Assembly (NCBI GenBank): GCA_016786485.1
Contig: JAEUWD010000048.1
Location: 1-64,000, forward strand
DNA length: 64,000 bases
Reading direction: 5' to 3'
Source: Bacteriovoracaceae bacterium
Lineage (GTDB): Bacteria; Bdellovibrionota; Bacteriovoracia; Bacteriovoracales; Bacteriovoracaceae
The stretch's first letter is position 1. Every line of letters starts with the position of its first letter. Both the position numbers and the translations under genes were made by a program. Under the pieces are notes generated by a model that saw nothing but the letters and a program-made list of their open reading frames with translations, had not been told where the DNA came from and did no database searches. Below are positions 14,598-60,271 of the stretch, in pieces.

Positions 14598-15433
14598 TTT
14601 ATCAGCTCGGTTTCGAGGGAGTTGAGTTCGGGCCACTGTGGAAATTGAGCCTCCCAAATTTCATTATGTCCTTCAATCCAAATTCGCGCGAGAAAATAAG
14701 CCTCATGATGACGACCAAACATAACTTTGGTTTTTTTCTCGTCATCAATAAACACAAAGTAACCTTTTATATTTTTATTAATACGTTCGCCAACTTTGGT
14801 GTTTTTCAGAATACCTACATCCACTTCACCGTCATGAGCATAATCTGTAATTTCGACCGCTTTTAACATTTCGACTAATTTTTTTTGTTGTGAGCTTGAG
14901 AGCTCAACCACTTTTTGATCAACCACATATTCAATTCGGTCGTAATCAGGAATTGGTATTTTTTTAATTCTGAGTTGGTCAAAATCAATAAATATTTTTT
15001 TGTACTCGCTTAGTTCAAGGTAGGCAGCACGTCCAGTTTGCTGCTCATTAATTTTACTACGAATCACGAGATAGACCCATTCGTCACTCACCACAAAACC
15101 GGTAATATCGTAAGTAAAATTTTCTCCACTAAACTGCATCGTCCTCGGGCTTAAGTTAGCGATTTTAAATGTTTTTTTAGGTTTATCCAGTGTACTTACT
15201 TGGCTTATCTCATCTAACCAAGCCTCCACTCGCGTCGGATCTAATGGGAATTTTGTAGGGCCTGTGCTTTGAGGATTATCTCTATCAAGACTTAAAGTCG
15301 TAAGCTGCTTATTTTCTGTTCGATGTATCACTTTAACATTAGATAGGCTTAATTTAGTCTGTTCAAAAATCAGTGTGGTTTTTTCGATGTTACAGCTGAC
15401 CAGAAATAGCATGATGGGTAAGATCAATTTCAT
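14594..15433 (-). CDS. Putative lipoprotein, unknown function
   Basis: The 279-residue protein starts MKLILPIMLFLVSC, a short lipoprotein signal with Cys at residue 14 (LVSC as lipobox). The mature part is mixed alpha/beta with many Lys, Glu and Asp, including a segment on protease-inhibitor-like or DUF4340-like lines (EYVVDQKVVELSS), but I cannot name a family. It lies 41 bases after the LysM-OmpA gene and overlaps the receiver-like gene by ATGA, so the three are probably one operon. Confidence 0.65.
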   Translation of the reverse strand: MKLILPIMLFLVSCNIEKTTLIFEQTKLSLSNVKVIHRTENKQLTTLSLDRDNPQSTGPTKFPLDPTRVEAWLDEISQVSTLDKPKKTFKIANLSPRTMQFSGENFTYDITGFVVSDEWVYLVIRSKINEQQTGRAAYLELSEYKKIFIDFDQLRIKKIPIPDYDRIEYVVDQKVVELSSSQQKKLVEMLKAVEITDYAHDGEVDVGILKNTKVGERINKNIKGYFVFIDDEKKTKVMFGRHHEAYFLARIWIEGHNEIWEAQFPQWPELNSLETELIK

Positions 15434-15474: not shown

Positions 15475-17271
15475 TTATTTTGTGCTTGGTTCACCAAATT
15501 TTCTAACATTAATCGACAGTGGGATGATTTTGAAAATCAAACGCTTGTTGATTTTATCTTCATGCGGCGTCTCAGCTGGCACACGTACGTTTTGACGGCT
15601 TAAATATAATACTTCTAAACGGTTTTTACTCCACTCATAATTCTGAGCTAAATAGTCTTTTATTGTATCCATACCGTGTAGCGCATTTTTCATATTGTCT
15701 GAATTATTCATTTCTAAGCTACCGGGCACCCAAATAACTTGGTACTTCACATCGGTTGCCAGTGCGAACATTTCAAATAACGTTTTTAGCTTAAACTTAC
15801 CTTCTTCGGTTAAGCGTAGTTCTTCATCAAAGAAATAATGACGACCCAACTCTAAGTGAAGTTCGTCGGCCTTAAGTTCAATTGAACCATATTTGGGCTC
15901 ATGTAATTTTTGAAAAATTTCTTTTGAGATATCTTGTAGAACTTTATCTGTTGCTGGAATGCTGGCGACACTTCTTTCGGCATTCATTTTCTTTCTGAAT
16001 TTCACCATCACATCAAAGCTTTTCTCTAATTTCTTCTCACCCGTTTTTTGAAAACCATATGAACCTGAAGAAAGCATACGTGATGACCAACCAAGATCTT
16101 CCACAAAGTATCGATGTAATTCCATTGATTGTGATAAAGAGTATTTTAAGCCAGAGACGCTTGATTTACTCTCTGTTTCTACTTTTTCGAAAGGACTGAA
16201 GCTTGAAAAGTGAATAGCTTCGACTGGCAAATCATTTAAATACTCGGAAATTTTAAAGAGAATCGGAGTATATTCTTTGACAACTTTTGGATTCGTATTG
16301 CCGTACACATAACGACCTGGCATTTGGAAAATGATCTTATTATCTGTGAATTCGACATAAACTTTATCTGAACCAAATTGTTCGTTTAAGTATTCCACAA
16401 ATTCTTGGAAGCGTTTCTCAGAATAATTATCGTTTTCTGGGAAATTCAGAATACATTTATCGACTTCTTTGTTTTTTTGTAACCAAAAACGGTGAGTTAG
16501 AATGCGATTCTTCTCTTTTAAAACTTGTTCTTGCGAATAAGTTAGCATTGATGGAACAAATAATGGGTTACTTTCTTCTAAGATATCTTTTTGTTTGCTC
16601 GTACTATTTAACTGCCCTTCAAGCTCTTTCATTTTACCAACAAGATCTTGCTTATCACGTTCCCATGATGAAAATTGAGCTTCTTTTTTCTCATAATCAA
16701 TTAAATCATCTACCAGGTTCTGGTTTTTGATTTTCAATTTTAAATATTCTTTTTGAAGAATTTCAAATTTGTCTTTTACTGGCGCTGTTTCATCAAATTG
16801 CAGACCGTCTTCTGATTCTTGACGATATTTTTTAACGACTGAAACTTTTTGCGGCTTAAATTCAATCACTTCTTGCGCCTCAGGCGCCACTTCTTTCATT
16901 TCAACTTCAATAACTTCACTCGCAATTTCTCGCGTAATAACCGGAGCTGGAGCTGACTTCTGTTCCTCTTTAGGTTTATTCGCTTCTTCAGGTGATAGCG
17001 CAACATCTTGGCCTAAAAACTCAATTTTAGTATTAGGTAAAATAGGAATTTTAATTTTCATGCCTTCTGATAGAGAGCTCGGTGAGACACCTGGGTTAGC
17101 ATCTATAATGTATTTCCAATTTTTTGTTGTGCCATAATATTTTTTTGAAATATTCATGAGCTCATCACCGGGTTTTACTTGGTGAATGATGGGCGCATTA
17201 TCTTCTACCGCAAAAGTGCTTTGCGTTAAAAGTGTGCAAGTCATTAATAAAACTAAACGAAGATTTTTCAT
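15475..17271 (-). CDS. LysM and OmpA-like domain envelope protein
   Basis: I take the ATG at 17271 (598 residues) because a GAGGAA site precedes it and the signal peptide (MKNLRLVLLMTCTLLTQSTFA) then begins cleanly; an upstream ATG at 17295 is eight codons longer. A LysM domain (about residues 31-77, HQVKPGDELMNISKKYYG) should bind peptidoglycan. A Glu/Lys-rich coiled coil follows (about 160-225), then two regions that look like degenerate OmpA/MotB-like domains (about 290-430 and 455-590; FSSFSPFEK, LSQSMELHRYFVEDLGW, GSYGFQ). The architecture suggests a periplasmic peptidoglycan-linking protein. It heads a putative operon with the lipoprotein and PilZ genes. Confidence 0.75.
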   Translation of the reverse strand: MKNLRLVLLMTCTLLTQSTFAVEDNAPIIHQVKPGDELMNISKKYYGTTKNWKYIIDANPGVSPSSLSEGMKIKIPILPNTKIEFLGQDVALSPEEANKPKEEQKSAPAPVITREIASEVIEVEMKEVAPEAQEVIEFKPQKVSVVKKYRQESEDGLQFDETAPVKDKFEILQKEYLKLKIKNQNLVDDLIDYEKKEAQFSSWERDKQDLVGKMKELEGQLNSTSKQKDILEESNPLFVPSMLTYSQEQVLKEKNRILTHRFWLQKNKEVDKCILNFPENDNYSEKRFQEFVEYLNEQFGSDKVYVEFTDNKIIFQMPGRYVYGNTNPKVVKEYTPILFKISEYLNDLPVEAIHFSSFSPFEKVETESKSSVSGLKYSLSQSMELHRYFVEDLGWSSRMLSSGSYGFQKTGEKKLEKSFDVMVKFRKKMNAERSVASIPATDKVLQDISKEIFQKLHEPKYGSIELKADELHLELGRHYFFDEELRLTEEGKFKLKTLFEMFALATDVKYQVIWVPGSLEMNNSDNMKNALHGMDTIKDYLAQNYEWSKNRLEVLYLSRQNVRVPAETPHEDKINKRLIFKIIPLSINVRKFGEPSTK

Positions 17272-17295
17272 CTTATATAATGTTCCTCGTCTCAA

Positions 17296-17375: not shown

Positions 17376-19580
17376 TTAGAAAAAGTAACTCACTCCGTAT
17401 TTAACACCATAATTTAAACTGTTTATCGTACCTTCGGTTTGAGTCTTGATATCCCGATCAAAATAGTCAACAAATGGCGCAAAAACAAAACGAAGGTTTT
17501 GAAATTTCCCGTAACGATAATAGAAACTGTAATAAGGATCGATTCCAAAGAAGCGGCCCAAACTATTTAAACTCCAACGCAGTTGTTGTTCCAGCCTGAA
17601 GTTATAATTTGAACGCAGATTAATATCCCAGGAAAAATGCATAATCGTATTCATGTCAATTTGCGAATTAAAAAAACGCTCTTTTAAAAACTCGCCACCT
17701 ACTAATAAAGCTGTGTAATTTCGGGGAACTAACACGGTTGATAAGGTGGTAGCATCAAAAGTATTACGTTGTAGTCCGGCCATCAGGGTTACTTTTGGAC
17801 TGTGATAATTTTCATCATTTAACCAAAATCTACGTAACAAGAGATACTTCATATCAATATTATGTGAACGGTCTTCACCTGTCGGAAGTTTCTGAATTTT
17901 TATATCCGAAATATCTTTTTGAAACTGAACCGCTACACCCCAGCGTTCCTGGTAAAAATATTTCACGCCCAAATCGAGCGCCTGAATATTAGCGAGATTG
18001 TACTTAACCGCATTGAAGGCAGATTCATTTTGTTGATTATAAGTAATCCACTTTGCCTCAAAATACATTTTAGGATCTTCAAAAAGTGAGAAGTCATAAC
18101 GATAATCTCGTTCACGACCTTGATCGTCCTTAATTTTTAGACGCAAAAACTGATCCCCTCGATCAAGCCATTGATATAGGTAGTTCTGCGGTGTGGTTTC
18201 GGGAGTATAAGTCAGCCCATTTACTTCGATAGTTCTAAATTTTTCACCATTGATGCGAAAATTAACTGTCTTAGAACGACTTTCAGAAATATAACGTGAA
18301 GATTCGATCACGATCTGAGATGGGATGAAGCCTGTTTTGTAATTTCGCTTTTTACTTATTTCAACTGGGTACTGTATCCCAAAACCATTTTCAAAATAAA
18401 TAATAAAATTATATTTCTCATCTAAGCGATAGTTTTTTTCGATAAAACGATGAGCTTTAAAGACTTCTTTGCCCAAATAAATTTTAGCTTTTTCTAAAAT
18501 TTCAAAATCTAAAATAAAATTATCGTCTTTTTGAAAATCATCAAAATAATTTTTTCCAGTTTTTGCTTTTTTTATTTCAACTTTTGGAATTTTAATCAAA
18601 AGTGGTTCTTGATCATGGCATACAATTTCAAGTTCGGTATCCTGATCAACCGGATGCGCCAGCACGACCTTGGAAAAATCTAACGGGTGACTCTCTTTTT
18701 CTCCAAATTCATATTCAACCTGACAAGCACTTGAATTTACAGGTTTTTTACGTTTAATATCCGCTACGATTTCCCAGTTTCCACCTTTCAAGTTGAAATG
18801 AATTTTCATTTCAGTATTTTCATTTTTATAATTTTGTAAAAAATCTTTTTGTAAAATTTCAAACATACTTTGACGTGTTTTGGGATCGGTTTTATTTTCG
18901 GGAATTAAAATATTTAATTCAATCTCCGCAACTTTTTCTTTGGAATTTTTAACAAAATCTTCTAAATTTTTGAGATGTTTGCGCGAAATCGCCAAAGTCA
19001 CATCATCTACTTTTAAATTTATTGTTTGTGGATCTAGTTTTTCTTCTTCATTTTTATTTTTTAAAAAATCTTGCACGAAAAGTGAGTTGTTTAAATACAA
19101 ATCACTGCCTTTTAATTCAATTTCAATTTTGTAAAAAGAAGGAACAACAAAAAAATCTTTATCTTCCGGTGATAACTCATCCACTAAAAATTTTTCGTGC
19201 TTTTTTTCATAGTACAAACCAAATTCTAAATGGCGCATTCCACCCGAATATTCATTGATAAATTCCTTGGTTGTCGTCGTAAAAAAAGCTCCAGGAGGAA
19301 CGGTGTCTTCGTCGAGAGTAACTTCAATATATTTTCCAAAGAAATCTGATTCGATAGTGAATTTTCCATCAGTCTGACTGATGCCCGAGCGGCCATCATT
19401 ACAGTAAACACGCACACCACTGATGCCATGTTCATTGGCCTCACGAATTCCATTCTGATTTTGATCAAAATATACAAAACCTAGAACTAAATAATGTTTG
19501 CTTAATTTATCGCGCTGAACTTGTGACCAAGCCATCGGGATAAACAAAAAGACGAATAGAAAGTTAAGTATTGAATTCAC
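17376..19580 (-). CDS. SdrD_B-like domain and putative outer-membrane barrel protein
   Basis: The 734-residue protein has a signal peptide (about residues 1-19, ending AWSQ). Residues 35-75 form a SdrD_B/Cna_B-like module: FDQNQNGIREANEHGISGVRVYC followed by TDGKFTIES. The middle is rich in Lys, Glu and Phe with beta character, and residues 500-734 look like repeated amphipathic strands ending in Phe, consistent with an outer-membrane barrel. The plan recalls large outer-membrane usher- or SdrD_B-type proteins, but no specific family is clear. It precedes the LysM-OmpA gene by 80 bases and is divergent from the giant lipoprotein gene, so it may act with one of them at the surface. Confidence 0.6.
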   Translation of the reverse strand: MNSILNFLFVFLFIPMAWSQVQRDKLSKHYLVLGFVYFDQNQNGIREANEHGISGVRVYCNDGRSGISQTDGKFTIESDFFGKYIEVTLDEDTVPPGAFFTTTTKEFINEYSGGMRHLEFGLYYEKKHEKFLVDELSPEDKDFFVVPSFYKIEIELKGSDLYLNNSLFVQDFLKNKNEEEKLDPQTINLKVDDVTLAISRKHLKNLEDFVKNSKEKVAEIELNILIPENKTDPKTRQSMFEILQKDFLQNYKNENTEMKIHFNLKGGNWEIVADIKRKKPVNSSACQVEYEFGEKESHPLDFSKVVLAHPVDQDTELEIVCHDQEPLLIKIPKVEIKKAKTGKNYFDDFQKDDNFILDFEILEKAKIYLGKEVFKAHRFIEKNYRLDEKYNFIIYFENGFGIQYPVEISKKRNYKTGFIPSQIVIESSRYISESRSKTVNFRINGEKFRTIEVNGLTYTPETTPQNYLYQWLDRGDQFLRLKIKDDQGRERDYRYDFSLFEDPKMYFEAKWITYNQQNESAFNAVKYNLANIQALDLGVKYFYQERWGVAVQFQKDISDIKIQKLPTGEDRSHNIDMKYLLLRRFWLNDENYHSPKVTLMAGLQRNTFDATTLSTVLVPRNYTALLVGGEFLKERFFNSQIDMNTIMHFSWDINLRSNYNFRLEQQLRWSLNSLGRFFGIDPYYSFYYRYGKFQNLRFVFAPFVDYFDRDIKTQTEGTINSLNYGVKYGVSYFF

Positions 19581-19674
19581 TTAAGTTCTATAATAATCGT
19601 TGAGTCGATTATTTACTAATGAAAACTCATTAATTTCAAAGTGTTAAGTTCAATTTTTTTACAAACCGCCCGCT

Positions 19675-19701
19675 TAAGTAGGCGGCGTAAAATGCCGAAG
19701 A
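19675..19701 (+). promoter_or_regulatory. Possible sigma-28 (FliA)-type promoter for the giant gene
   Basis: TAAG (19675-19678), exactly 15 bases, then GCCGAAGA (19694-19701) matches the FliA layout. It sits about 100 bases before the ATG at 19804 in a 223-base divergent gap. The same bases can also form a GC-rich hairpin (CCGCC pairing with GGCGG at about 19667-19685), so the GC content itself may have another purpose. Confidence 0.3.
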
Positions 19702-19803
19702 GATTACAGGGAATTATAAGTAGCTGATTTCTGGTTGCTAAGTGACTGGAAGTACAATTTAAGCAGGGGAGAAAGCTTAGGTTGCGCTTTTATAAATAAA
19801 ATT

Positions 19804-22800
19804 ATGTGGTTCATCTTTAACACATTTAAAAAATATCTTAACGGGATTTTAGTAATCTCATTCCTAGCTGCGTGTTCAGTGAGCACGGATAAACTCGGCA
19901 ACTCCGTCGACAACATGACTGTCGGCATGGTTAGTGGTGATGGACAGTTTGCCCCGCTTAATTCGACTTTCACCAGCCCCATCGTGGTACAAGTTGTAAA
20001 GCCAGTGGGTTACCCTGGTAGTATCGAAGGCCTTCCAGTCTTTTTTACGTTTGATGCTATTTCCATCGCCGGAACTTTTTCTTCTAGTATTGCCTATACT
20101 GACGCTAACGGTTTTGCCCAAGTTACAGTTTCTTCCCTTAATCAACCTGGTGTTATGCAAATCACTGCTTCACTCCCGCTGGCCAATGGTGATATCACTA
20201 CCAACTTCACACTCTTCGTTAGTGGTAATGCTGAAGATTGGGAAATTATTCCAAGCACTTTAACTCCAGTGGCTGGTGTGCCGTTCACACTTACTATTCG
20301 TGCCCTATTAAATACTTCTCTCCCTGATCCTGATTTTGACGGTCCTAAAGATTTAATTTTCACTACCACCGCTGGTAACTCACCTGATGGAACACCAATT
20401 ACTTTGCCTGCCAATGGACTTTATAATTTTACCGATGGAGTGATCGATACACCGTTAACTGTTATTTTCCATGACAGTTCTGAGAGTGCATTGAACACCT
20501 TCACCATCTCCATAGACGGTTCGGGTCTTGGCTTAACTGTTTCAAGTCCGATTCAGGTTATGGATGATGCCGTCACTGAAGTGCGAGTCGTTGATTCAAA
20601 CTCTTGTGCCGCTAATGCTATTGGAAATATTAATTATCAAGTCCCAGCTCCACAAATTTTATATTCGTACTACTATGACCAATGGGGGAACTGCGTTTCT
20701 TCTGCTAACGTTGACTGGACCACTTCATTCTTGGCCACACAAGCAACAATCGATCCTCCTACCACTGGACAACCAAGTGTTATCTATACTCCGATTCAAG
20801 CTGGTACAACCGGTACTGTTAGTATCACTGATGGAACATTTTCGGATAGCACAGGAACAATTACTAACGTTACAGGTACCGCTGCGTATTTTGTTATTAT
20901 TGGTTTAAATTCGCTCGGTAATTACACTATCAATCCTGGCGTTAACAGCATTGCTCAAGTTGAAGCGCGAGATATTTTTGGTAACTTGGCTTCTAGCTAT
21001 TCGGGTACACATTCACTAACTTGGACCACTAATGCCACCGCCCCCAACGCTCCAGCAGCGCTAGGATTACCGGCCAATTTACCTGTGACTCCAACTAACG
21101 GAAATTATCAATTTATTAACGGCGTTTTAACTTCACCAAACCCATTATTTAGACCTTATGATTCAAATGAAACCCCCACACTCACTGTCTATGATGGCGC
21201 AAGTTGTGGAACAAGTGTTTGCGGCACAACAACACCAATCACAGTTAATGATGCTGCTCTGACATACGCTCTTGTTCGTTCAAGTGCGAATGGACTCGGT
21301 GGTGATCCTGCCACTTTCAATGCTCCAGCATTAACACCAAACGCTGATCAGTCTTTTGCACTTTACTGCGCAACTTACGACACATACGGAAACTACCTAC
21401 AAGATGATGCTACTGCTGACTGGGGTGTCGCCGGAGTTATTACAGCGCCAGATATTTCACCAGGCTTAGTTAATCAAAGTAATGTCACTTACGCTGCACG
21501 TGTGGCCGGAATAGGTTCAGTCTATTGTGATGTTGACGGTGTTGTTAATGGGCTTGGGATTGCAGATAGCACTGGTAACTTCAACGTTGTTCCAGGCGCG
21601 CCGAAGAGTTTTAGAATTAATGGTGGTACTGGAGAAGGTTTACCATTCACAGTTACTGCCGGAAATATTTGGTCAGCGACTGTTAGAACTTACGACTTAG
21701 ATAATAACTTATGTACCAATTATACCAATGCTGCTCACGCTGTAACCACTAGCTATTTAGGCTCGACCGCTGTTTTCCCTGCATACCCTTCAGAAATTAC
21801 TCCAACTCATACTTCAGCATTAATAGACAATACCGCCACTAACTCAAAATCAATGAGCTTAAATATTGTTGGCGGTGTGGCGACACTTTCGAACATGAAA
21901 TTAATTAATGACACTGAAAACTTAGATGAGCCAACCTTAATTGTTCAGGATAACGCTGCTGTTTTAACCAGTGGTGTTTCGGGTATTATTAGTGTTAATC
22001 AAAATATTTTATCACAAATATCGATCCGCACAGCTGCTAACAATGCTGGCATTATGGCCAGTGGCTTAGCGACAACCACTGATACACCAATTAATTTATT
22101 CTCAGCAGGTTATGATAGTTCAGGGAACTATATTGGTGATCAAAATACTGACTGGACTTTTGTTGCGCCTTCAGGAAATTGTAGTGTGGGTGATATTTCT
22201 GGTAATCCTGTTCCAGTCACAAATACTGTTGGTATTATCTACGATCCAGATTTGGTTGGTAACTGTAATATTACCGCACGTCACGGTAGCGGTGTGCTCG
22301 ACAACACAGGAAACATTACTGCTACTAATGGTGTAAAAAATAATTTTGAAGTAAAACTTGCTGGTAGCGTGACAACTGTTGGTGCTGGTGATTTCTTAAC
22401 TGTCGTTGTTACCGCTCGCGATGCTGACGGTAACCGAGTGACAAATTACACACCTGTTACAACTTATAGCTTCACCACTTCAGCTGTAAACTCGCCTGAG
22501 GGCGTAGCTCCGATTGTGCCAGGACTTGTGGCCGGTGACTTTGCTTTAGGCCAAGCTATTATTCCATTATTACAAGTTTTCAATACTGCAGCGACATTTA
22601 CGATGACAGCGACTGAGACAGTTGGTGGTACAACTACCGGAACATCCGTTCCCATTACTGTGACTCCAAAAACGTTAGATCACTATGCTACCTTAACTCC
22701 TACTGGTCCCTATGTCGCCGATGGAGCAAGTCCATTTAGCGTGACCGTTCAGTCTCGCGATCAATATGGTAACCCAACCACCTTAGGTATCGGCGCAAAT

Positions 22801-25800
22801 ATTAATTTAACTCCAGTATGGTTAGCTGATGAACCAGTGGTTGGAACAATTGGTGGTGGTACTGGATTAACTTTTGGTCCAGGCTCATCGAAAGTGATGT
22901 CAGGCTTAACCTATAGAGTAGGACATCAAGTTGCAATCGTTGCAACTGATACAGGTACAAAAACAACCCCGGTTGCTTACCGCACACCGATTACCTTTAC
23001 TCCAGTAGCAGCAACCATTAACAATTATCAGTTAACTTCATTCTCAACCACGACTCCGACCGCAGGCGGGGCATTTAATGGTAGATTTGTCGCTAAAGAT
23101 ATTGCAGGCAATACCATTACAGGTATCGACGCATTAATGGGCACATATAATTTCAGCGTGACTTCAGGTGCAACAGCATCTGCCTACGGCAATACACCAA
23201 CTCATCACTCTGGCACGATCCCATTTACCGCGGGTACATCGAACACTGTTAACTTTACTTTCTATAACGAACAAACAGTAACGGCTGCTTCATTTGTTGT
23301 TAACGATGGTGCTGGTCATACCGGAACATCTACTAATGATATCAACGTTCAAGAAAATATTTTAAATCACTATAACAACGTGACTAGTACTCCGTTTCCT
23401 ATCGATGCTGATGGTATTGATACTTTCCAGGCAGTTGTTACCGCACGCGATCTTTACGGAAATATCGTAACAGGAGACGCAAGTATCAATCTTGGTGTTA
23501 ACCATATTTCTCCCGTAGTTATTCCAGGTAATCTTGGTGGCTCAACCACTACTATTAATATGACCAGTGGTACGACGACCATTAACAACTTAACTTACGA
23601 TGTTGTGGGTACGATGGAATTAACTGCGACTGGTGGCGCGACTGTACCGATGACTGCCGCTCGTTCAGTTGACTATATCTTTGGAACGGTTCCAGGAAAC
23701 ATTGATCATTATCAAATCACATTCACTGGTCCTCCGGCCGGTGGTCCTGCTACCGCGGGTACTCCATTTACTTTTACAATTACCGCCAAAGATGCCGTTA
23801 ACAATACCGTCACAACAGAAGACGCGGTACTTAATGGACGCAATTTTACTTGGGGTGGATTAAATGTTTCACCTGAGGGCATGAACCCTTCACCATTAAC
23901 AGCACAGACTTACGCTTTCACCGCTGGTGTAGCAACGGCTTCTGTCACATTTACTAAAGCCGAAGTTTTGGCGATTGGTGCTTTAACCGTAACTGATAAT
24001 ATTGGTATTGTAGGTGCCAACACTGCACCGTTCACCATTCAAGCCAACACCGCTACTCATATCGTTTTCTTAGGTGCTAATAGTGGTACAGCTGATGCCA
24101 CCACCACCTATTCTGTCACAATTGAATCCCGCGATGCTTACGGGAACTTGCGAGCTACAGGAAATGCTGCCGACAGTAACTTAACCATTCGAGCAGAAAG
24201 AGTGACTGGTGTTGCTAACGTAGATACTTTTGGCGGAACTATCACTGGTGTTAATCTTCAAGCCAGTGCTTCCGTCACTCGAAGCAACCTCACATATCAA
24301 GTTGCTCACACCACCAGATTTGATTTTACAACCGCTCCTTCAATAACCATAAATGATACACTTTCAACCACTGTTACATGGGCAATGAATCAAGCAACGG
24401 TAGCGTCTTACACGCTTGAGCCTGCCACGCCCGGAAGTATCAATGCTGGTGTTCCTACTAATATTCTTCTTACTGCTTTTGATGGTGGAGGAAATATCAT
24501 TTTAGCGGAAGATGCGGTACTCGGAACACTCAATTTCAATTTTACGACATCTGCCGATTGTGATGCGCCTTTAGGTGCACCATGGATTGCAGCCAATAAC
24601 GATCCGGCCAATGGAACAAAAACATTTGTTAATGGTGTAGCAACTCTTCCATATACATTCTTTAATATTGCAGCAACCTGTGGAACAGCTGGAGATATTC
24701 AAGTCACTGATACAACAAATGCTATTGGTCCCGTTTCAAACACTACAATATTTACTGTGCTTCCTGGTGTCGCTCATCACTTTGGAACGGTTGCAGCAGG
24801 ATTTGGTCCAGTGCCACAAGCTAATAACACCAGACAAAATACGACACAAGTTACTGTGACTTTATATGATGAGTATGGAAATCCAAAAAATGACTCTACT
24901 ATTAATGGAAATATTTTAACTTTTGATAAAACCGCAGGTGCTTTAAATAATGGTACTTTGTTTGCTTGTGAACCTGCTGATGGTGATGGGTGCTTAGATG
25001 GAGATCGAAAATCAATTACTAACGTCATATTAGATTTCACAGGAACCGCCACTCAAACGATTTATGATTTTTCATACACGGTTGGACATACAATAGAATT
25101 ATTTGCTACCAGTGGCGCGGTCTTAACCGCTAGCGCTGATAGTGCTGATTTACCATGGCAAATTGTAGCAACGACAATTAATAGTTATAGCATCTCTCGA
25201 ACAGCTCCAAGTGTAACAGCTGGCGTACCAATCGCTTGGACTGTAACCGCTTACGATGCAGCCGCCAATCCACTTACAGGCGCTGTGGCAGAAGCTGTAC
25301 TTGAAGGACTCCAACACCGTGTGATTGATAACTCAGGAACCTTTGCTTTAAACGGACCTGAAACAGGTACTTTCTCTTCTCCATTTGCTAATCTTGATTG
25401 GAACCCTGCGACGGGGACAGCAACCGTTAATTTAACTTTTTATCACGCCACCAATGATGTTCAAGTTGGGTACTTACGCTTTGAAGACAATCAAGGTGTA
25501 CCAATTACAGCAGCTAACATTATTGGGAATAACATGGATGTCTTACCAGCAGCCGCAAATCACTTTCATACTTATGCCACAGGATTTGCTGCTGTTAATG
25601 CTGATACCGCTCGTAATAACGGCACCGATGTTCGAATTGATTTACAAGACGCTTATGGAAATTTAACAACTGGTCCTGCCGCGGTACAAGTTCAACCTCG
25701 CTTTGTCGCAGCACCACTTTTTGCCGCTGGTGATGGAGTCAATGTTGGTACCTTAACCGCTTCAACCACTGACGGTGGTGGTGTGGTCAACGTAACAACT

Positions 25801-28800
25801 ATGTCACTCAACTTCTCAGCTACTTCGCAAATTACTCTTTATGATTTTGGTTACAATGTTATGCACACGATGGAGCTTCGGGCTTGGGCAGGTGCGGTTG
25901 ATACAGCAGCGGCTGATTCAGCCAATATCAATTGGAACTTAGTTGCCACCAACGTTGCTTCTTACAGACTCGAACCATTGAGTCCTACCGGAACTGCTGG
26001 CACCCCGACTGATTGGGTTGTGCGAGCTTTTGACCCTGCACTTAACCCGATGAGTGGTGCAACCAATAAAGCCTTCTTAGATTCTCCCGGAGTTTTATAT
26101 TCGATTGTGAATCTCGCTGGAACTAATATGAATGGTCCAGAAGCTGGTGTAGTTTCACTTCCAAATTTAGCTTCACTCAATTTCAACGCCGCTTTTGGTA
26201 CAGCTCAATTTACTGGTGCGGACCGACCGATTTTTTACAATAAAGCTAACGACGTTCAGGCCGGGTATTTAAGACTTACAAATAACCAAAATGCTTTTGT
26301 TTACACCATAACAGCAGCAGAAGCGATGACCATCAACAATGCCGCTGGAAATCACTTCCACATTACACAAGCAGGTTTTCCAGCTAATGCTTCTAATACC
26401 CCTATTACCACAACTTCGATTACGGTCGCACTCCAAGACGTTTACGGTAACCCTGCCACTGATGGATCAATTGCTGGAAATCTTTTAACTTTTGTTCGAG
26501 CTCAAGGTTATGGAGCAAGTCTTGGTACTATGACCGGCTGTCCACCAACTGCAGGTGATGGATGTCTCGCAGGAGCACGCCAAAATATAACAGCGATGAG
26601 TTTAGATTTTAACGCTTCAACCACTCAAGTGATTCACGATTTACAATATAGTGTTGCTCACAACACACGTATCACCGCTACTCAAGGTGCTGTCACGACA
26701 GCAGTGGGAGATAACGTTGAACAAGAGTGGAATCCGGTTGCTGCAACCATCGCTTCATGTACTCTAACCGTTGATACTACCGTTCATCCAACATCAACTG
26801 AGTTAGCAGGTAATCCTATGACCTGGAGAATAGTTGTTAGAGATCTTGCTGGTAATGATATGGTAGACGGACTACCAACCTCAGATAATAGAACTTTTTT
26901 AAACACACAAAATTTTAGAATTCGAAATGTAACTGCCATCGGAAATTTTAATGGACCAGAATCCGGCGCTTCCAATTTAGCAACGACAGCTAACACACTC
27001 GGTAGTGCACTTAATTCAGGCTCTGGCTTCGATGGTTTAACCGGTAGTGCAAGCTTAACTGGAGCACAGAGACCTATTGCATATAGTGATACATATAATA
27101 TTCCACTTAATAGTATTCGAGTGCAAATAAACGGAACTAACTTTTGTAACAATTCAACAACCATGGCAATTGATCCTAATATTTCAAATCACTTTCACAC
27201 TGATGCCACTGCTGGATTTCCTGCCACAGCAACAGCTGCGGGTACTGCACAACTAGCAACACAAGTTAATGTAAGACTTCATGATTTATATGGAAACTTG
27301 AGATCAGATCCAGCAATTACCGCAGCTAGCGTTTCGTTTGCTAAAGTCTCGGGATACTCTACGGTCAATGGAACACTCCAAGGTTGTGGCCCAGGTCAAG
27401 GTGGAAATGCGTGTGGTGTTGCCCGGGCCAACATCCCAGGTATGACACTTGATTTTAGTGCTGCAAATACCGTAAGCATTTATGACCTTAATTACAACGT
27501 AGCTGATACAATTGAAGTTATTGTAACTAATGGCGGAGTAACAACCAGTGCTTTACAAGCGGCCGATCTCGCCTGGAATCCAACCACTGCGACCATTAAT
27601 TCATATACTGTAGCTCGATCTTCTGCTGCTACTCAAGTCGCGGGCACTGCTACCAGTTGGACCTTAACTGCACTTGATGGTGCAGGGAACGCCATGAGTG
27701 GAGCAGCTAACAAAACGATGCTTGATGCTGTTAGTTTCAATGTGACAGATCGATCTAATGCGGGGGCCGGAGGATTTTTAAATGGACCAGAATCAGGAAC
27801 ATTTTCATATACTGCTGGTCCACTCGTTTGGGTATCAGGCTCTGGCACGGCCCCAGTCAGTGTAACTGCCTACAATGCGGCTAACGATATTATCGCCGGA
27901 GATTTACGTTTCACTGGAGCCGCAATTTCTGTCGACAACACAGACACTGTTGATATTACCTACGCCGCTGCTAACCACTTCCACACAACTTCAGCTGGCT
28001 TCACTGGAACTGACACGGCCAACGGCGCTGCTAAAACTGCGACAAGCGTACAAATTGATCTCCAAGATATTTACGGTAACGCTTCTCGAACTGCCACGGC
28101 CGTAACACTTGCACCGGTTTATTTAGCAGCACCACTCTTTGCTGCTGGCCACGGTACTAACCTTGGCACACTAACTGCCGCTACCTCTGATGGTGGTGGA
28201 ACAGCAAACGTTACTGGTATTAATTTGGATTTTAATGCTGCTTCATCATACACACTTTATGATCTTGGTTACAACGTTTCACATAATATTGAACTCAGAG
28301 CAACTGCTGGTGCTATTCTTACAGCGACTGCTGCTGCTTCAGATTTAGTTTGGACCGTACCTTCACCTGTTAACGTTGCTAGCTATACCATGACACCAAA
28401 CCTTGCGACAGGAACTGCAGGTACTGCGACGAACTGGACAGTACGCGCATTCGACCCTGCCGGAAATATTATGTCAGGGGCAAACAACGCTGCTGGATTA
28501 AATGCATTAACTTATACTTATTCTGATATTTCAAATGGTGGTGCGGGTGGATTTATGAATGCACCAAACGCTACACAAACGGTGAAAGTGGCTGGATCAA
28601 ATTTACTTCCAGGTGGTACAACCGCTACCACTACTTGGTCAGCCGTTACTGGTACTGCTCCTATTCAATTTACTTTCTACAATGTCGCTAACGATGTTCA
28701 AGCCAGTTATTTAAGAGTTTCAGACGGAACTATTTCATATAACAATGCAGGCGCAAATATTATGACGATCAACGGAGCCGCCGGAGATCACTTTGAATTT

Positions 28801-30762
28801 TCTGGCTTAGCAGGTTTTGCTGCCAACGCTTCGGGCACTCGTCAAAATGCGACGGCCGTAACGGTTTCACTTTATGATACTTATCAAAACTTAACCACAG
28901 ATGCTGCGGTCACTGCTGCGACTTTAGGTTTTACTCGTTTAAGTGGTTACACCAATACAGGCACCTTACAAGCAGCAACGACTGACGGCGGAGGCTTAGC
29001 AAACATCCCAGGCATTACTTTAAATTTTGCAGCCGCTTCTCAACGAACGCTCTATGACTTTAGTTACAAAGTAAAACAAGATATCGAATTAACCGCTTCC
29101 CATGCCTCTGTTACAAACGGAACGACGGTACCAGCAACACTTTCATGGAATTTAGTTGCTCAAACTGTTAATAGTTATGCCTTCAATTGGACAACAGCAT
29201 CACCAGCAAATGTCGGTGACTTACTCGCGGCTGAACTCACAGCTTATGATGGTGGCGGAAATATTATTAGCGATGTTGGAGATCAAGCCACACTAAACTC
29301 AATTAGTTTCAGTCATTTGGTTAACGCCTCACTAAACGCACCACTCGGTGCTGCGGCACAAGCTCCTTGCGGTAATACGGGCTGTACACAAAGTTACACC
29401 TTTACGGCCGGTGTGGCACCTGTAGCTAGTTATCAATTTTTTAATGACGGGGCCGTTAATACAACTTGGGTACGTGTCACCGATACAACCAATAGTATTA
29501 ATCGAGATATTCAAAATGCTATGACCTTAAATCCTATCGTTACTAATCGAATTATTTTTGCCAATCCACCTGAAAGCATCACTGGAACTGCTCAAAACGT
29601 AACGATGCAGGCGCAAGATGTTTACGGAAATCTCGATGTAAACTATGCCGGAACAATCACAGTAGATGCCACTGGTTCTGCGACAGTCGATGCAGTACCT
29701 AGTTCTAATAGTGTTACTTTTGCTGGAGGAAATGCCACTTTCTCAATCAATGATGCCGTCCGTGAAACAGTGACGATGAGTTTATCTAGTTGTGGTGTAA
29801 TTCCAGATTGTACTGATACTGAAGATATTATCTTCACCGGTCCCGCACATACTCTTGTCTACTTAACTTCACCAGTTGCTAACGTCGTTGTGAATACCAA
29901 TTTTTCAACTACGCCAACGGTTGAGGTTCGTGATAGTACTGGAACCAGAGTGTGGGCAGATGCTGCTACAAATATTACCTTGACCGCATTCAGTGGCGCT
30001 GGTTGTGCGGGAGCACCGCTTGGCTCACTTGCCAATAATACGGGTACTGTTACTGCAGGACAAAGAGCTTTCCCGACACTTCGTCATAGTGCCGGCGAAG
30101 CTATCTATATCCGCGCCTCAGGTGCAACTGTCGATGCCTGCGCAGGACCAACCACCGTTTACGATGCTTTAGTTACAACAAGTATTCCAGCCTCAGTCAT
30201 CCAAAACACTGTGAGCCGTATTGAAGTTCAAGGTGGGGTTCCTCCTCTAACAGGATCTATTTTTGTTAACAACTCAGGTGCCTCATTATCGGCCGCTGCT
30301 GGTTACACCGGCGGATTATGTCCGGCCAATCGTCGCTGCTGGGATTATACAGCGGGCTTAACTCAAGGTACGACCGATACATTCCGTGTTACTGATAGTG
30401 GTGCTTCGATGGATAACGATAATATCAATATTAACGGTGTTGATTTAGCTAATACTGGTGACCCTGTCGCTTACGGCCCACAAACCATCGATACTGCACA
30501 GAACTACTTCATTACAAACAATGGCAATATCGCGTCCGGTATCTTGAATGTTTCTTGGACTAATAATGCGATGTGGACCAAAACATTTGATAGCTGCAAC
30601 GGCGCAAGCATCGCTGGTGGTGGTGGTACATGCCAAATTACTATTCAATTTAATGCTGGAACTGGTGGTGGTGGTTCTGGAGCCTATGGCCCAGAAGTCT
30701 TAACGGTTACTGGTGCCACAGATGGCTCAATTACGCTTAACTTAACGGGAAGTATTCCATAG
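19804..30762 (+). CDS. Giant surface lipoprotein of alternating Ig-like domains
   Basis: From ATG 19804 the product is about 3652 residues; the open frame extends upstream to 19735, but MWFIFNTFKKYLNGILVISFLAAC is a proper lipoprotein signal with lipidated Cys24, so I use this start although it has no obvious ribosome site. Ser at +2 suggests outer-membrane sorting. The rest is almost wholly Ig-like modules rich in Thr, Ala, Asn and Gly. Two module types alternate: one containing a V.L.D.YGN signature and one containing an AG....T..A.D..GN signature, together 230-280 residues. The last ~170 residues resemble an ASH/choice-of-anchor domain (FDSCNGASIAGGGGTCQITIQF). Such proteins usually act as adhesins or surface fibres; a role in prey or surface contact is only inference. 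No enzyme motif is seen. Confidence 0.8.
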   Translation: MWFIFNTFKKYLNGILVISFLAACSVSTDKLGNSVDNMTVGMVSGDGQFAPLNSTFTSPIVVQVVKPVGYPGSIEGLPVFFTFDAISIAGTFSSSIAYTDANGFAQVTVSSLNQPGVMQITASLPLANGDITTNFTLFVSGNAEDWEIIPSTLTPVAGVPFTLTIRALLNTSLPDPDFDGPKDLIFTTTAGNSPDGTPITLPANGLYNFTDGVIDTPLTVIFHDSSESALNTFTISIDGSGLGLTVSSPIQVMDDAVTEVRVVDSNSCAANAIGNINYQVPAPQILYSYYYDQWGNCVSSANVDWTTSFLATQATIDPPTTGQPSVIYTPIQAGTTGTVSITDGTFSDSTGTITNVTGTAAYFVIIGLNSLGNYTINPGVNSIAQVEARDIFGNLASSYSGTHSLTWTTNATAPNAPAALGLPANLPVTPTNGNYQFINGVLTSPNPLFRPYDSNETPTLTVYDGASCGTSVCGTTTPITVNDAALTYALVRSSANGLGGDPATFNAPALTPNADQSFALYCATYDTYGNYLQDDATADWGVAGVITAPDISPGLVNQSNVTYAARVAGIGSVYCDVDGVVNGLGIADSTGNFNVVPGAPKSFRINGGTGEGLPFTVTAGNIWSATVRTYDLDNNLCTNYTNAAHAVTTSYLGSTAVFPAYPSEITPTHTSALIDNTATNSKSMSLNIVGGVATLSNMKLINDTENLDEPTLIVQDNAAVLTSGVSGIISVNQNILSQISIRTAANNAGIMASGLATTTDTPINLFSAGYDSSGNYIGDQNTDWTFVAPSGNCSVGDISGNPVPVTNTVGIIYDPDLVGNCNITARHGSGVLDNTGNITATNGVKNNFEVKLAGSVTTVGAGDFLTVVVTARDADGNRVTNYTPVTTYSFTTSAVNSPEGVAPIVPGLVAGDFALGQAIIPLLQVFNTAATFTMTATETVGGTTTGTSVPITVTPKTLDHYATLTPTGPYVADGASPFSVTVQSRDQYGNPTTLGIGANINLTPVWLADEPVVGTIGGGTGLTFGPGSSKVMSGLTYRVGHQVAIVATDTGTKTTPVAYRTPITFTPVAATINNYQLTSFSTTTPTAGGAFNGRFVAKDIAGNTITGIDALMGTYNFSVTSGATASAYGNTPTHHSGTIPFTAGTSNTVNFTFYNEQTVTAASFVVNDGAGHTGTSTNDINVQENILNHYNNVTSTPFPIDADGIDTFQAVVTARDLYGNIVTGDASINLGVNHISPVVIPGNLGGSTTTINMTSGTTTINNLTYDVVGTMELTATGGATVPMTAARSVDYIFGTVPGNIDHYQITFTGPPAGGPATAGTPFTFTITAKDAVNNTVTTEDAVLNGRNFTWGGLNVSPEGMNPSPLTAQTYAFTAGVATASVTFTKAEVLAIGALTVTDNIGIVGANTAPFTIQANTATHIVFLGANSGTADATTTYSVTIESRDAYGNLRATGNAADSNLTIRAERVTGVANVDTFGGTITGVNLQASASVTRSNLTYQVAHTTRFDFTTAPSITINDTLSTTVTWAMNQATVASYTLEPATPGSINAGVPTNILLTAFDGGGNIILAEDAVLGTLNFNFTTSADCDAPLGAPWIAANNDPANGTKTFVNGVATLPYTFFNIAATCGTAGDIQVTDTTNAIGPVSNTTIFTVLPGVAHHFGTVAAGFGPVPQANNTRQNTTQVTVTLYDEYGNPKNDSTINGNILTFDKTAGALNNGTLFACEPADGDGCLDGDRKSITNVILDFTGTATQTIYDFSYTVGHTIELFATSGAVLTASADSADLPWQIVATTINSYSISRTAPSVTAGVPIAWTVTAYDAAANPLTGAVAEAVLEGLQHRVIDNSGTFALNGPETGTFSSPFANLDWNPATGTATVNLTFYHATNDVQVGYLRFEDNQGVPITAANIIGNNMDVLPAAANHFHTYATGFAAVNADTARNNGTDVRIDLQDAYGNLTTGPAAVQVQPRFVAAPLFAAGDGVNVGTLTASTTDGGGVVNVTTMSLNFSATSQITLYDFGYNVMHTMELRAWAGAVDTAAADSANINWNLVATNVASYRLEPLSPTGTAGTPTDWVVRAFDPALNPMSGATNKAFLDSPGVLYSIVNLAGTNMNGPEAGVVSLPNLASLNFNAAFGTAQFTGADRPIFYNKANDVQAGYLRLTNNQNAFVYTITAAEAMTINNAAGNHFHITQAGFPANASNTPITTTSITVALQDVYGNPATDGSIAGNLLTFVRAQGYGASLGTMTGCPPTAGDGCLAGARQNITAMSLDFNASTTQVIHDLQYSVAHNTRITATQGAVTTAVGDNVEQEWNPVAATIASCTLTVDTTVHPTSTELAGNPMTWRIVVRDLAGNDMVDGLPTSDNRTFLNTQNFRIRNVTAIGNFNGPESGASNLATTANTLGSALNSGSGFDGLTGSASLTGAQRPIAYSDTYNIPLNSIRVQINGTNFCNNSTTMAIDPNISNHFHTDATAGFPATATAAGTAQLATQVNVRLHDLYGNLRSDPAITAASVSFAKVSGYSTVNGTLQGCGPGQGGNACGVARANIPGMTLDFSAANTVSIYDLNYNVADTIEVIVTNGGVTTSALQAADLAWNPTTATINSYTVARSSAATQVAGTATSWTLTALDGAGNAMSGAANKTMLDAVSFNVTDRSNAGAGGFLNGPESGTFSYTAGPLVWVSGSGTAPVSVTAYNAANDIIAGDLRFTGAAISVDNTDTVDITYAAANHFHTTSAGFTGTDTANGAAKTATSVQIDLQDIYGNASRTATAVTLAPVYLAAPLFAAGHGTNLGTLTAATSDGGGTANVTGINLDFNAASSYTLYDLGYNVSHNIELRATAGAILTATAAASDLVWTVPSPVNVASYTMTPNLATGTAGTATNWTVRAFDPAGNIMSGANNAAGLNALTYTYSDISNGGAGGFMNAPNATQTVKVAGSNLLPGGTTATTTWSAVTGTAPIQFTFYNVANDVQASYLRVSDGTISYNNAGANIMTINGAAGDHFEFSGLAGFAANASGTRQNATAVTVSLYDTYQNLTTDAAVTAATLGFTRLSGYTNTGTLQAATTDGGGLANIPGITLNFAAASQRTLYDFSYKVKQDIELTASHASVTNGTTVPATLSWNLVAQTVNSYAFNWTTASPANVGDLLAAELTAYDGGGNIISDVGDQATLNSISFSHLVNASLNAPLGAAAQAPCGNTGCTQSYTFTAGVAPVASYQFFNDGAVNTTWVRVTDTTNSINRDIQNAMTLNPIVTNRIIFANPPESITGTAQNVTMQAQDVYGNLDVNYAGTITVDATGSATVDAVPSSNSVTFAGGNATFSINDAVRETVTMSLSSCGVIPDCTDTEDIIFTGPAHTLVYLTSPVANVVVNTNFSTTPTVEVRDSTGTRVWADAATNITLTAFSGAGCAGAPLGSLANNTGTVTAGQRAFPTLRHSAGEAIYIRASGATVDACAGPTTVYDALVTTSIPASVIQNTVSRIEVQGGVPPLTGSIFVNNSGASLSAAAGYTGGLCPANRRCWDYTAGLTQGTTDTFRVTDSGASMDNDNININGVDLANTGDPVAYGPQTIDTAQNYFITNNGNIASGILNVSWTNNAMWTKTFDSCNGASIAGGGGTCQITIQFNAGTGGGGSGAYGPEVLTVTGATDGSITLNLTGSIP
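22675..29160 (+). repeat. Nine two-domain coding repeats in the giant lipoprotein gene
   Basis: A His-containing start (HY/HI/HF/HFH) followed by a ..D.YGN module recurs at about 22681, 23368, 24058, 24778, 25561, 26352, 27190, 27976 and 28789. Spacing is about 690 bases for the first units and 780-840 for the later ones. The later five are most alike (ANHFHT..AGF, YN.AND.QA..LR). They are diverged at DNA level rather than exact tandem repeats. More diverged units lie at 20.5-22.6 kb. Confidence 0.75.
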
Positions 30763-30770
30763 AGGTTAGT

Positions 30771-31589
30771 ATGAAGTTTATCTTATTATTCTTACTTCCA
30801 ATTTTCACTCTGCACGCTGCCGATATGGAAATGTGTTTGACTCAAGCCGAAGACTTTAAAAATAAAAATGGTATTGAAGCTGAATGTTTTTCACTGGTCA
30901 AAGCCGCGGCACAATCAGAACAAAAAAGTTCAAGTCAAAAAATCCAAGCTTTTGCTTATAAGAATTTCCTTTTTGCTGAAAACCAAGGACAGAGACTTGT
31001 CATTGCTGGTGACAAAACTAATCTTGGAGAAATTCACTCGATTAAAATTTCACAAAACGAAAAATGGTTGGCAGTAATCCAAAACAACGCTGATAAAAAA
31101 GAAATTTTAGTTTTCCCTACAAATCGTAACGGAAACATAGCCCCTTATAAAGTTTACGCTGGAGATGAATTTCAAAACATTATCGACTTGGCCTTCCACG
31201 AAAGTTTAGCTGAAATCTATTTTCTCGATGGTAAAACCTATGACGTTTTCGCGGTTAGCGAAGATAGCGATTCACGCATGTTAATTGACAGTCAAAAACC
31301 GATTAAACTTCGAAGTTACGACAAAAATGATCTCATGGTAAAAAAACCCTCACAGATCGAACTTACCAACGAAAGTCTTTTAGTCTTTGATGAGAACGAA
31401 CAAAAACTAGGCATCATTCCTATTGATAAAAATCTTGAAAAACATGTTCAAAATATTTTAGCGCCAGGACTTAAAAATAACGTGGCCAAAATCCGTCTAC
31501 GTGACAATCAAACACTTGATGTGTTCACTCAAGATGAGACTGAGAAGGCCCAAATCGAGCTAGAAAGGACTAAAGCTAAATCAGAATAA
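30771..31589 (+). CDS. Secreted protein of unknown function, possible beta-propeller
   Basis: The 272-residue protein has a clear signal peptide (MKFILLFLLPIFTLHAAD). The mature part repeats short beta segments such as HSIKISQNEKWLAVIQ, EILVFP, IIDLAFHESLAEIYFLDG, similar in rhythm to WD40/NHL-type propellers, and ends in a charged helix. An AGAGG site precedes the ATG by 5 bases. It starts 8 bases after the giant lipoprotein gene and is probably co-transcribed, so it may help export or assemble that protein; this is inferred from position only. Confidence 0.65.
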   Translation: MKFILLFLLPIFTLHAADMEMCLTQAEDFKNKNGIEAECFSLVKAAAQSEQKSSSQKIQAFAYKNFLFAENQGQRLVIAGDKTNLGEIHSIKISQNEKWLAVIQNNADKKEILVFPTNRNGNIAPYKVYAGDEFQNIIDLAFHESLAEIYFLDGKTYDVFAVSEDSDSRMLIDSQKPIKLRSYDKNDLMVKKPSQIELTNESLLVFDENEQKLGIIPIDKNLEKHVQNILAPGLKNNVAKIRLRDNQTLDVFTQDETEKAQIELERTKAKSE

Positions 31590-59767: not shown

Positions 59768-60271
59768 TCGTTTTTTCTTTATAAATCATTCTAATTTATT
59801 GTTTTTATAGGAGTTTTCACCATAACTGTCCTTTGGGGATATGAGTACTCAACTCAAACTTGATCAAATTAATCCACATGTGAACAATTTTGGGGATAAA
59901 TAAATAGCCGCAAAAGCAAATCCACTCAGCAGACTTAAATACTATCTATTGTGGGTAAAACTTTGTGAGTTTCTCGTATCTAGCACAGCTATTTTGGTAA
60001 AAAATTCGAGATATACGCAGGTTTAACCAAAATTAACTGATAATTATCCTTTTTCATACAGTTATTGTCACATCATAACTATAAGTAATTATTAAGTTTA
60101 TCTAGTTTTATCCCAGTTTTCCCAGGTATATATTAATTCTTATATAATTATATTACTTAAATACCCTAAACATCCTCATCTATAGACGCTTATATCTGAA
60201 CTTGCATAAATGAATTTGTAAGGCTAAAAAATGAATTAATTAGGCTTAAGCCTTCTACCAAAGGAAGAGTT
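59768..60271. other. dnaA-dnaN intergenic gap, candidate oriC
   Basis: These 504 bases hold no gene. Single-mismatch DnaA-box-like 9-mers occur at 59870-59878 (TAATCCACA), 59879-59887 (reverse of TTGTTCACA) and 59950-59958 (reverse of TTACCCACA). The following stretch is very AT-rich, especially about 60125-60165, and could be the unwinding element. It also must carry the dnaN promoter. No perfect TTATCCACA box is seen, so the call rests on position and composition. Confidence 0.45.

What the first reader, a model, noticed from the sequence alone, without database searches (positions are those of the whole stretch)
19804..30762. 3650-residue surface lipoprotein made of alternating A-B Ig-like domain pairs
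Two module types alternate with a unit size rising from about 230 residues (22.7-24.8 kb) to 260-280 (24.8-29.2 kb), giving at least nine dyads plus diverged ones upstream and an ASH-like C-terminal end. The later dyads share long segments such as YN.AND.QA..LR and DGGG...(I/M).L.F.A. This ordered duplication suggests recent growth of a rod-like surface fibre of roughly 25 domains anchored by lipid at one end, with no catalytic module seen. In a probable predatory lineage it may contact prey or surfaces.
Basis: partly seen in the sequence, partly recalled or inferred. Interest (0 to 1): 0.5.

Follow-up and report, generated by a model that had tools for sequence, protein, structure and literature searches.

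The report
Giant surface stalk with dedicated wall anchor
A very large lipid-anchored bacterial protein built from about thirty immunoglobulin-like units, with a fixed base and tip and a length-variable middle, is encoded beside genes that probably fasten it to the outer membrane and cell wall, like a known bacterial adhesin family split over several genes.

Summary
The ORF at 19804-30762 encodes a 3652-aa lipoprotein of about 29 modules. Nine A-B dyads (d8-d25) alternate strongly (mean shuffle Z: A-A 16.6, B-B 9.1, A-B 0.7); three older dyads lie upstream. The modelled dyad is Ig-like, nearest to invasin-type adhesins. "Recent growth" is not supported: the large dyads are 55-65% identical in DNA.

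The main new result: the gene belongs to a conserved cassette, twice in this genome and, complete or in part, in five others: giant lipoprotein, small downstream partner and, divergently, an outer-membrane protein (periplasmic domains plus predicted 10-strand OpcA/OmpT-like barrel) and a LysM protein. These are the parts of an inverse autotransporter, here on separate polypeptides with a lipid-anchored passenger; the IAT barrel family was not found in the genome. Stem (N1-d11/d13) and cap (d27-d28) are collinear between copies; the zone between them changes in length and domain type.

Surface exposure, adhesion and any predation role are inferred. The barrel protein is in only 5 of 368 phylum genomes searched, so this is no core predation part. 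New variant of a known kind.

The parts
19804..30762 (+). Giant lipoprotein gene, 3652 aa (signal peptide, lipobox LAAC with Cys24)
   Evidence: lipobox read from sequence; a lipobox-like start is also seen in 5 of 5 other 5' ends (C13, G060, G020, G061, G246)
19915..24771 (+). Stem: N1 (Big_1-like) and d1-d13; one-to-one collinear with the in-genome paralogue and with G060; N1-d11 also in G246
   Evidence: Big_1 E 2.5e-6 for N1-d1, below cut-off
22675..24771 (+). Stem dyads d8-d9, d10-d11, d12-d13 (229, 230, 240 aa)
24772..29541 (+). Variable zone: six A-B dyads d14-d25 (253-279 aa); 2 dyads in the paralogue, 3 in G079
   Evidence: AlphaFold2 model of d16-d17 (25555-26346)
29542..29844 (+). 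d26, single module between the dyads and the cap
29845..30759 (+). Cap: d27 and d28 (d28 ends in an ASH / choice-of-anchor-D-like domain); matched at the C-terminus of other copies
30771..31589 (+). Small exported partner (272 aa), 8 bp downstream; N-terminal Cys pair; possibly propeller-like (weak)
   Evidence: found after 7 of 8 cap-bearing giants whose 3' end was seen
17376..19580 (-). Outer-membrane partner: SdrD_B-like domain, middle region with SiiA-like fold, C-terminal predicted 10-strand barrel (about 500-734)
   Evidence: next to the giant in 6 of 6 copies with a visible 5' end
15475..17295 (-). LysM protein with long C-terminal region; probable peptidoglycan anchor
14594..15433 (-). 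279-aa lipoprotein (weak DUF4340 hit, E 0.13); a homologue lies in 4 of 7 cassettes, one of them weakly linked
19581..19803 (.). 223-bp divergent intergenic region between outer-membrane partner and giant

Best explanation
A lipid-anchored, extended surface stalk with its own envelope mount. The giant protein is exported as a lipoprotein and its N-terminal lipid sits in the outer membrane. A fixed stem (N1-d13) stands next to the membrane, a zone of A-B Ig dyads sets the length, and the conserved cap (d27-d28) is at the far end and is the likely contact part. The divergent genes supply the mount: the barrel protein spans the outer membrane and reaches into the periplasm, and the LysM protein ties the complex to peptidoglycan so that the long lever is not pulled out. 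The small co-directional partner probably helps export or folding. Shown here: gene order and co-conservation, domain alternation, stem-zone-cap plan, predicted folds. Inferred: surface exposure, physical contact between the proteins, adhesion.
For: Conserved cassette: outer-membrane partner beside the giant in 6 of 6 visible 5' ends, small partner after 7 of 7 cassette 3' ends. LysM homologues (E <= 1e-20) and barrel homologues (E <= 1e-15) occur in exactly the same 4 of 129 order genomes. The four core genes are duplicated together in the own genome. Dyad model pLDDT 86.4, best Foldseek hits InvE, FdeC, InvD; profile match to FdeC E 1.9e-8. Barrel region matches OpcA at Z 20.6, 2.4 A over 192 residues. 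LysM domain in 6 of 6 anchor proteins at E <= 1. Stem 41-50% identical in 14 of 15 pairs of copies (the 15th shares little length) against 23-30% for the barrel protein and 26-39% for LysM, so the stem looks constrained and not a mere spacer.
Against: No experiment on location. No lectin or other known binding domain recognised in the cap. Gene neighbourhood does not prove contact. A 10-strand barrel is narrow, so how a 3650-residue lipoprotein gets outside is unexplained. The barrel protein's periplasmic part is modelled poorly (whole model pLDDT 72, pTM 0.48). In G020 the LysM gene is on the contig with the giant's 3' end, not beside the barrel gene. G079 has giant and small partner, but neither barrel nor LysM was found in its genome (56% complete). 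Giants that match the stem in part but lack barrel and LysM hits occur in G029 and G036.
Confidence: 0.55

Rival explanations
1. The barrel protein, with LysM and small partner, is mainly a dedicated exporter (a Slam- or inverse-autotransporter-like translocon) that carries the giant lipoprotein across the outer membrane.
For: Barrel beside giant in 6 of 6 visible 5' ends and duplicated together. In intimin the passenger leaves through the lumen of its barrel (PMC7718877, passages), and in YeeJ loss of LysM lowers surface level (PMC5595812, passages). Autotransporter translocators match the barrel at Z 8.8-9.8 and the FimD usher appears in the Foldseek list (E 1.1e-5, but TM 0.10).
Against: Predicted barrel has 10 strands and is closest to OpcA/OmpT, well above the translocators; IAT_beta not found in the own genome with a ringing control. 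SlipAM not found either, but its control rang nowhere, so that says little.
Confidence: 0.2
2. The giant is a periplasmic/cell-wall scaffold, or a coat-like structural layer, and not an adhesive stalk.
For: Stem is more conserved than the membrane partners, unusual for a simple spacer; LysM and a SiiA-like domain point to peptidoglycan; no binding domain recognised.
Against: About 29 Ig modules at about 4 nm each (recalled) exceed the periplasm's width; nearest folds are surface adhesins; length changes freely at one zone.
Confidence: 0.15
3. An ordinary large Ig-repeat adhesin whose neighbours are conserved by chance or by shared regulation only.
For: Giants without this cassette occur in the same group (G029, G036, second G060 giant), and G079 lacks a detected barrel and LysM gene.
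Against: Same partners in several genera and in a second family, with the four core genes duplicated together in the own genome; LysM and barrel in exactly the same genomes.
Confidence: 0.1

Closest known systems
Inverse autotransporters (intimin, invasin, FdeC, YeeJ; type Ve)
   Same: Same three functional parts: periplasmic LysM, outer-membrane barrel, Ig-like (Big) passenger with a distal cap; dyad profile and fold nearest to FdeC, InvE, InvD, invasin; repeat number varies in that family too (PMC9704523, section 6 read).
   Different: Parts are on separate genes; the passenger is a lipoprotein; barrel is OpcA/OmpT-like with 10 predicted strands; IAT_beta not found in the genome; no lectin tip recognised; small partner and the 279-aa lipoprotein have no counterpart known to me.
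Periscope Proteins (surface rods with variable tandem-repeat number; PMC9704523, abstract and section 6 read)
   Same: Rod-like array of surface-type domains whose number differs between homologues.
   Different: DNA identity between dyads is low (55-65% here, 74-83% in G246), while that class was defined on highly identical repeats; strain-level variation could not be examined.
Slam/SlipAM-exported surface lipoproteins
   Same: Lipoprotein gene next to a gene for an outer-membrane barrel protein with periplasmic domains (Slam layout recalled).
   Different: Pfam gives only SdrD_B for the window's barrel protein, not SlipAM.
Bdellovibrio MAT fibres (PMC10769870, search listing with start of abstract) and the MIDAS adhesin Bd0875 (PMC11003981, listing and one passage)
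   Same: Surface proteins proposed for prey contact in the same phylum.
   Different: A term search of the Bd0875 paper for Ig-like, LysM, OmpA and beta-barrel found none. The MAT paper was not read. No evidence here of a predation role.

Membership tests
Inverse autotransporter (type Ve) | Barrel and passenger in one polypeptide | tested here: not met
   Barrel is in a separate divergent gene in 6 of 6 copies with a visible 5' end
Inverse autotransporter (type Ve) | IAT_beta translocator family (PF11924) | tested here: not met
   0 matches in own genome (98% complete) at E <= 0.001, control rang in E. coli; not among Pfam hits of the barrel protein
Inverse autotransporter (type Ve) | LysM peptidoglycan-binding module | tested here: met
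   Met, but as a separate protein: LysM in 6 of 6 anchor proteins at E <= 1, best 1.1e-6; binding itself not tested
Inverse autotransporter (type Ve) | Big/invasin-type Ig domains in the passenger | tested here: met
   FdeC profile match E 1.9e-8, Foldseek InvE/FdeC/InvD, VIA FdeC Z 9.9 and invasin Z 9.7; Pfam scores remain below cut-off
Inverse autotransporter (type Ve) | C-type-lectin-like tip | tested here: inconclusive
   No Pfam family in the 406-aa C-terminal part; cap not modelled
Periscope Protein | Highly identical repeats at DNA level | tested here: not met
   Dyads d14-d25 55-65% nt identity over 15 pairs; only short imperfect repeats. TRF cannot see units over 500 nt and is no test
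Periscope Protein | Repeat number varies between close strains | not testable with these tools
   One genome per species held; differences seen only between paralogues and genera
Slam (SlipAM)-dependent surface lipoprotein | SlipAM (PF04575) protein in the genome | tested here: inconclusive
   0 matches, but no control genome rang
Type I-secreted RTX giant adhesin | No lipobox; RTX-type C-terminus | tested here: not met
   Lipobox present; Pfam scan at E <= 10 lists only Big_1
Bacterial lipoprotein | Signal peptide with lipobox | tested here: met
   LAAC/Cys24 in the window copy; similar starts in 5 of 5 other 5' ends, read by eye

The most novel reading that the evidence does not exclude
A split, lipid-anchored counterpart of the inverse autotransporters: a multi-protein surface-stalk system of the Bdellovibrionota, in which passenger, barrel and peptidoglycan anchor are separate polypeptides inherited together as a cassette, with a fixed stem and tip and an exchangeable, length-setting middle zone.
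Probability: 0.4. Interest if true: 0.7.

Novelty: new variant of a known kind. Interest (0 to 1): 0.5.

Why it matters
It would show that the LysM-barrel-Ig stalk logic of intimin/invasin adhesins can be built from separate proteins with a lipid-anchored passenger, and it gives a natural series (A-B dyads in the variable zone: 6 in the window copy, 2 in its paralogue, 3 in G079; at least 4 in G246 and at least 1 in G020, whose arrays are cut by contig ends) for asking how stalk length is set. It also poses a concrete export problem: how a 3650-residue lipoprotein reaches the surface next to a narrow barrel. A defined cassette gives genes to delete in a group whose cell contacts are poorly known.

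Tried and rejected
Rejected: recent dyad duplication. Tandem Repeats Finder gave no row for the window or for the most uniform relative, but its longest period is 500 nt and the dyads are 687-837 nt (741 nt in L042), so it is no test. Rejected: free-standing gene. Viral contigs: one scan with the barrel alignment, 15 stretches matched a pattern, none confirmed. Genome contigs: one scan, 113 stretches, 3 confirmed. Solved-structure search by sequence with the whole giant: 0 hits at E <= 0.1; small-partner profile: 0 hits at E <= 1, and its only Pfam hit is RMC1_N, E 0.0056, below cut-off, in 1 of 7 members, so 'propeller-like' is weak. NCBIfam: none for the giant. Barrel hits in G105, G097 and G032 cover only the SdrD_B-like domain of other proteins and were dropped. 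G017, a Big_1-array-like protein, was a weak hit and was not counted. G029 and G036 giants match the stem in part but had no barrel or LysM hit; they are not counted as cassettes. SlipAM search uninformative. A family missing from a fold listing is not excluded: the intimin barrel is not among the 50 rows shown, which shows nothing. My reading by eye of LamG and fibrinogen-like ends in the G029 giant got no Pfam support (0 families). Eight paper searches showed me no paper on this system; the lists were judged by title and start of abstract and some were capped (15 of 203, 12 of 118, 10 of 287 papers shown), in an open-access library only.

Dropped or limited before counts: the structure model used 27 of the dyads found, not all. 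The trees used only module hits above 35 bits (A) or 45 bits (B) from six copies (30 and 31 rows); G020 contributes only B, A, B. For G079 the frame holds internal stops; these were shown as X, removed from tree inputs and left as X. G020 stem values rest on about 620 residues. G061's 5' piece is a 288-aa frame that ends in a stop just before the contig end and matches only N1-d1, so that copy is uncertain there. BLAST E-values refer to a small set (cassette proteins plus window ORFs).

Full report
WHAT IS THERE. The ORF at 19804-30762 (+) encodes 3652 aa with a lipobox (LAAC, Cys24) and 0.8% Cys. I split it by eye into N1 plus d1-d28. Pairwise shuffle Z-scores show two classes that alternate from d8 to d25: mean Z 16.6 for 36 A-A pairs, 9.1 for 36 B-B pairs, 0.74 for 81 A-B pairs (none above 5); 1 of 10,000 label permutations was as extreme. 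Upstream, d2/d4/d6 resemble one another (Z 7-10) and so in part do d1/d3/d5/d7 (Z 0.6-12.6), giving three older dyads. A cysteine-flanked loop occurs in d14, d18, d20 and p14 but not in d16, d22, d24 (read).

AGE. DNA repeats are short and imperfect (four families of 25-27 nt), and the six large dyads are 55.3-65.3% identical in DNA over 15 pairs. TRF found nothing but cannot see periods over 500 nt. So growth by dyads is real but not recent.

FOLD. The dyad d16-d17, modelled from an alignment of 27 dyads of the window and relatives, has mean pLDDT 86.4, pTM 0.82. Foldseek's best PDB hits are InvE, FdeC and InvD (E 2.6e-6 to 2.7e-5; TM normalised by query only 0.29-0.34, rmsd 9-12 A over both domains), followed by filamin and complement domains. 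The high rmsd over two domains probably means a different inter-domain angle. The dyad profile finds FdeC by sequence at E 1.9e-8.

THE CASSETTE. The own genome holds a second giant, 3027 aa, on contig C13, with small partner, barrel gene and LysM gene in the same arrangement. Family, order and phylum searches and one scan of named genome contigs found more copies. I examined seven: window, C13, G020, G060, G061, G079 and G246. By matching contig lengths and positions, G246 holds the record JABJQG010000019.1 ('Bdellovibrionaceae bacterium'), G060 JABIHA010000051.1 ('Bacteriovoracaceae bacterium') and G020 JABGVH010000113.1 ('Halobacteriovoraceae bacterium'), all MAGs. The divergent SdrD_B/barrel gene is next to the giant in 6 of 6 copies whose 5' end is on the contig (G079's is not). 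The LysM gene follows the barrel gene in 5 of these 6; in G020 it lies on the contig with the giant's 3' end. A small exported protein with an N-terminal Cys pair follows the giant in 7 of 7; four of them are linked by BLAST (E 5e-6 or better in a small set) and three by alignment only, with the Cys pair invariant. The one other cap-bearing giant seen, in G060 (C95/C131), has a different N-terminus and no such partner. A roughly 280-aa lipoprotein is present in 4 of 7; the G246 member is linked only weakly (BLAST E 3e-4, not listed by phmmer). At E <= 1e-20 the LysM protein occurs in 4 of 129 order genomes and at E <= 1e-15 the barrel protein in the same 4. The profiles were built from these very loci, so the informative point is that no further genome has one without the other. 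Against this: stem matches at E <= 1e-10 occur in 7 of 129, and three of those (G079, 56% complete; G029; G036) have neither barrel nor LysM hit. In the phylum 5 of 368 genomes have the barrel protein, the fifth (G246) in another family.

STEM, ZONE, CAP. Window and paralogue match one to one and in order from N1 to d13 (33-69% identity) and again at d27-d28 (38 and 43%). Between these the window has six A-B dyads plus d26, the paralogue two dyads plus five tandem single modules (39-61% alike), G079 three dyads, G246 at least four dyads directly after d11, and G060 another kind of single module. Trees agree: A modules d8, d10 and d12 each form a cross-genome group (support 100/99, 92/92, 100/99) and all variable-zone A modules one group of 16 (100/98). 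For B modules d9, d11 and d13 also group by position (97/93, 93/78, 97/93), but variable-zone B modules do not form one group: d25 and its likes sit with d13. Identity between copies is 41-50% for the stem N1-d11 in 14 of 15 pairs (the exception, 27%, is G020-G079, which share little), but 23-30% for the barrel protein and 26-39% for LysM, over 15 pairs each (the sets differ in one genome). In G246 four consecutive dyads with a 741-nt period are 74-83% identical in DNA and 78-95% in protein; dS is 0.8-1.2 and dN/dS 0.03-0.15, so protein likeness is kept by selection, not by recent copying (dS near saturation is imprecise).

THE OUTER-MEMBRANE PARTNER. Its C-terminal 235 residues are modelled best (blocks of 60-95 pLDDT, most above 75) as ten long strands; the whole model is weaker (pLDDT 72, pTM 0.48; other four models 59-61). 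VIA-align: OpcA Z 20.6 (2.4 A, 192 aligned), a Legionella porin Z 18.9, OmpT/Pla Z 16.8-18.6, autotransporter translocators Z 8.8-9.8. Residues 183-278 resemble the peptidoglycan-binding domain of SiiA (Z 8.8, 2.7 A, 90 aligned), near the level that the tool calls common, and 28-129 an Ole e 1-like sandwich (Z 9.1). SdrD_B is supported by Pfam (E 3.4e-5, below cut-off) and by a PDB profile hit to SdrD (E 4.3e-9).

HOW IT PROBABLY WORKS. Lipid holds the N-terminus in the outer membrane; barrel and LysM proteins fasten the base to membrane and wall; the dyad zone sets the reach; the cap faces outward. In intimin and YeeJ the same three parts sit in one chain, and in YeeJ loss of LysM lowers the surface level (PMC5595812 and PMC7718877, passages). 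IAT_beta was not found in this genome. Contact between the proteins, exposure and adhesion are inferred. The rarity of the cassette argues against a core role in predation.

KNOWN OR NEW. Not a member of the inverse autotransporters (one-chain rule and barrel family not met), though it may work like them. Eight paper searches showed me nothing on this system, judged from listings, some capped, in an open-access library.

Noticed in passing
G060:C95 (L093:3-9275, -) and C131 (L092:4397-6310, -): A second giant lipoprotein made largely of d27-like modules (19 BLAST matches of d27 to L093) and, on C131, ending in the d28 cap, with no small partner: cap modules are shared between giants. That the two contigs belong to one gene is inferred from a shared end.
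   Followed up: partly
G029:C55 (L020, L060): Two giant frames in tandem (3928+ aa and a 5929-aa frame) next to a gene that looks like a CpaF-type ATPase (recalled label); no barrel hit in that genome.
   Followed up: partly
L021:2-5239 (-), G017:C32: Lipoprotein start followed by a long array of nearly identical Big_1-like repeats beside a subtilisin-like protease gene (labels read by eye).
   Followed up: no
L058 (G079:C92): The giant's reading frame is interrupted by in-frame stops (TAG and TAA listed) in an incomplete genome: pseudogene or sequence error, undecided.
   Followed up: no
L042:14228-17191: Four dyads up to 95% identical in protein but only 74-83% in DNA, with dN/dS 0.03-0.15: strong constraint on repeat sequence.
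   Followed up: yes
L019:8267-9400 (-) and L058:6148-7335: The ASH / choice-of-anchor-D-like C-terminal domain is repeated about four times in G020 (by eye; three stretches) and more than once in G079, once in the window: the tip can also multiply.
   Followed up: partly
window 58235-61387: dnaA and dnaN lie about 27 kb from the cassette, so the cassette may be near the replication origin.
   Followed up: no
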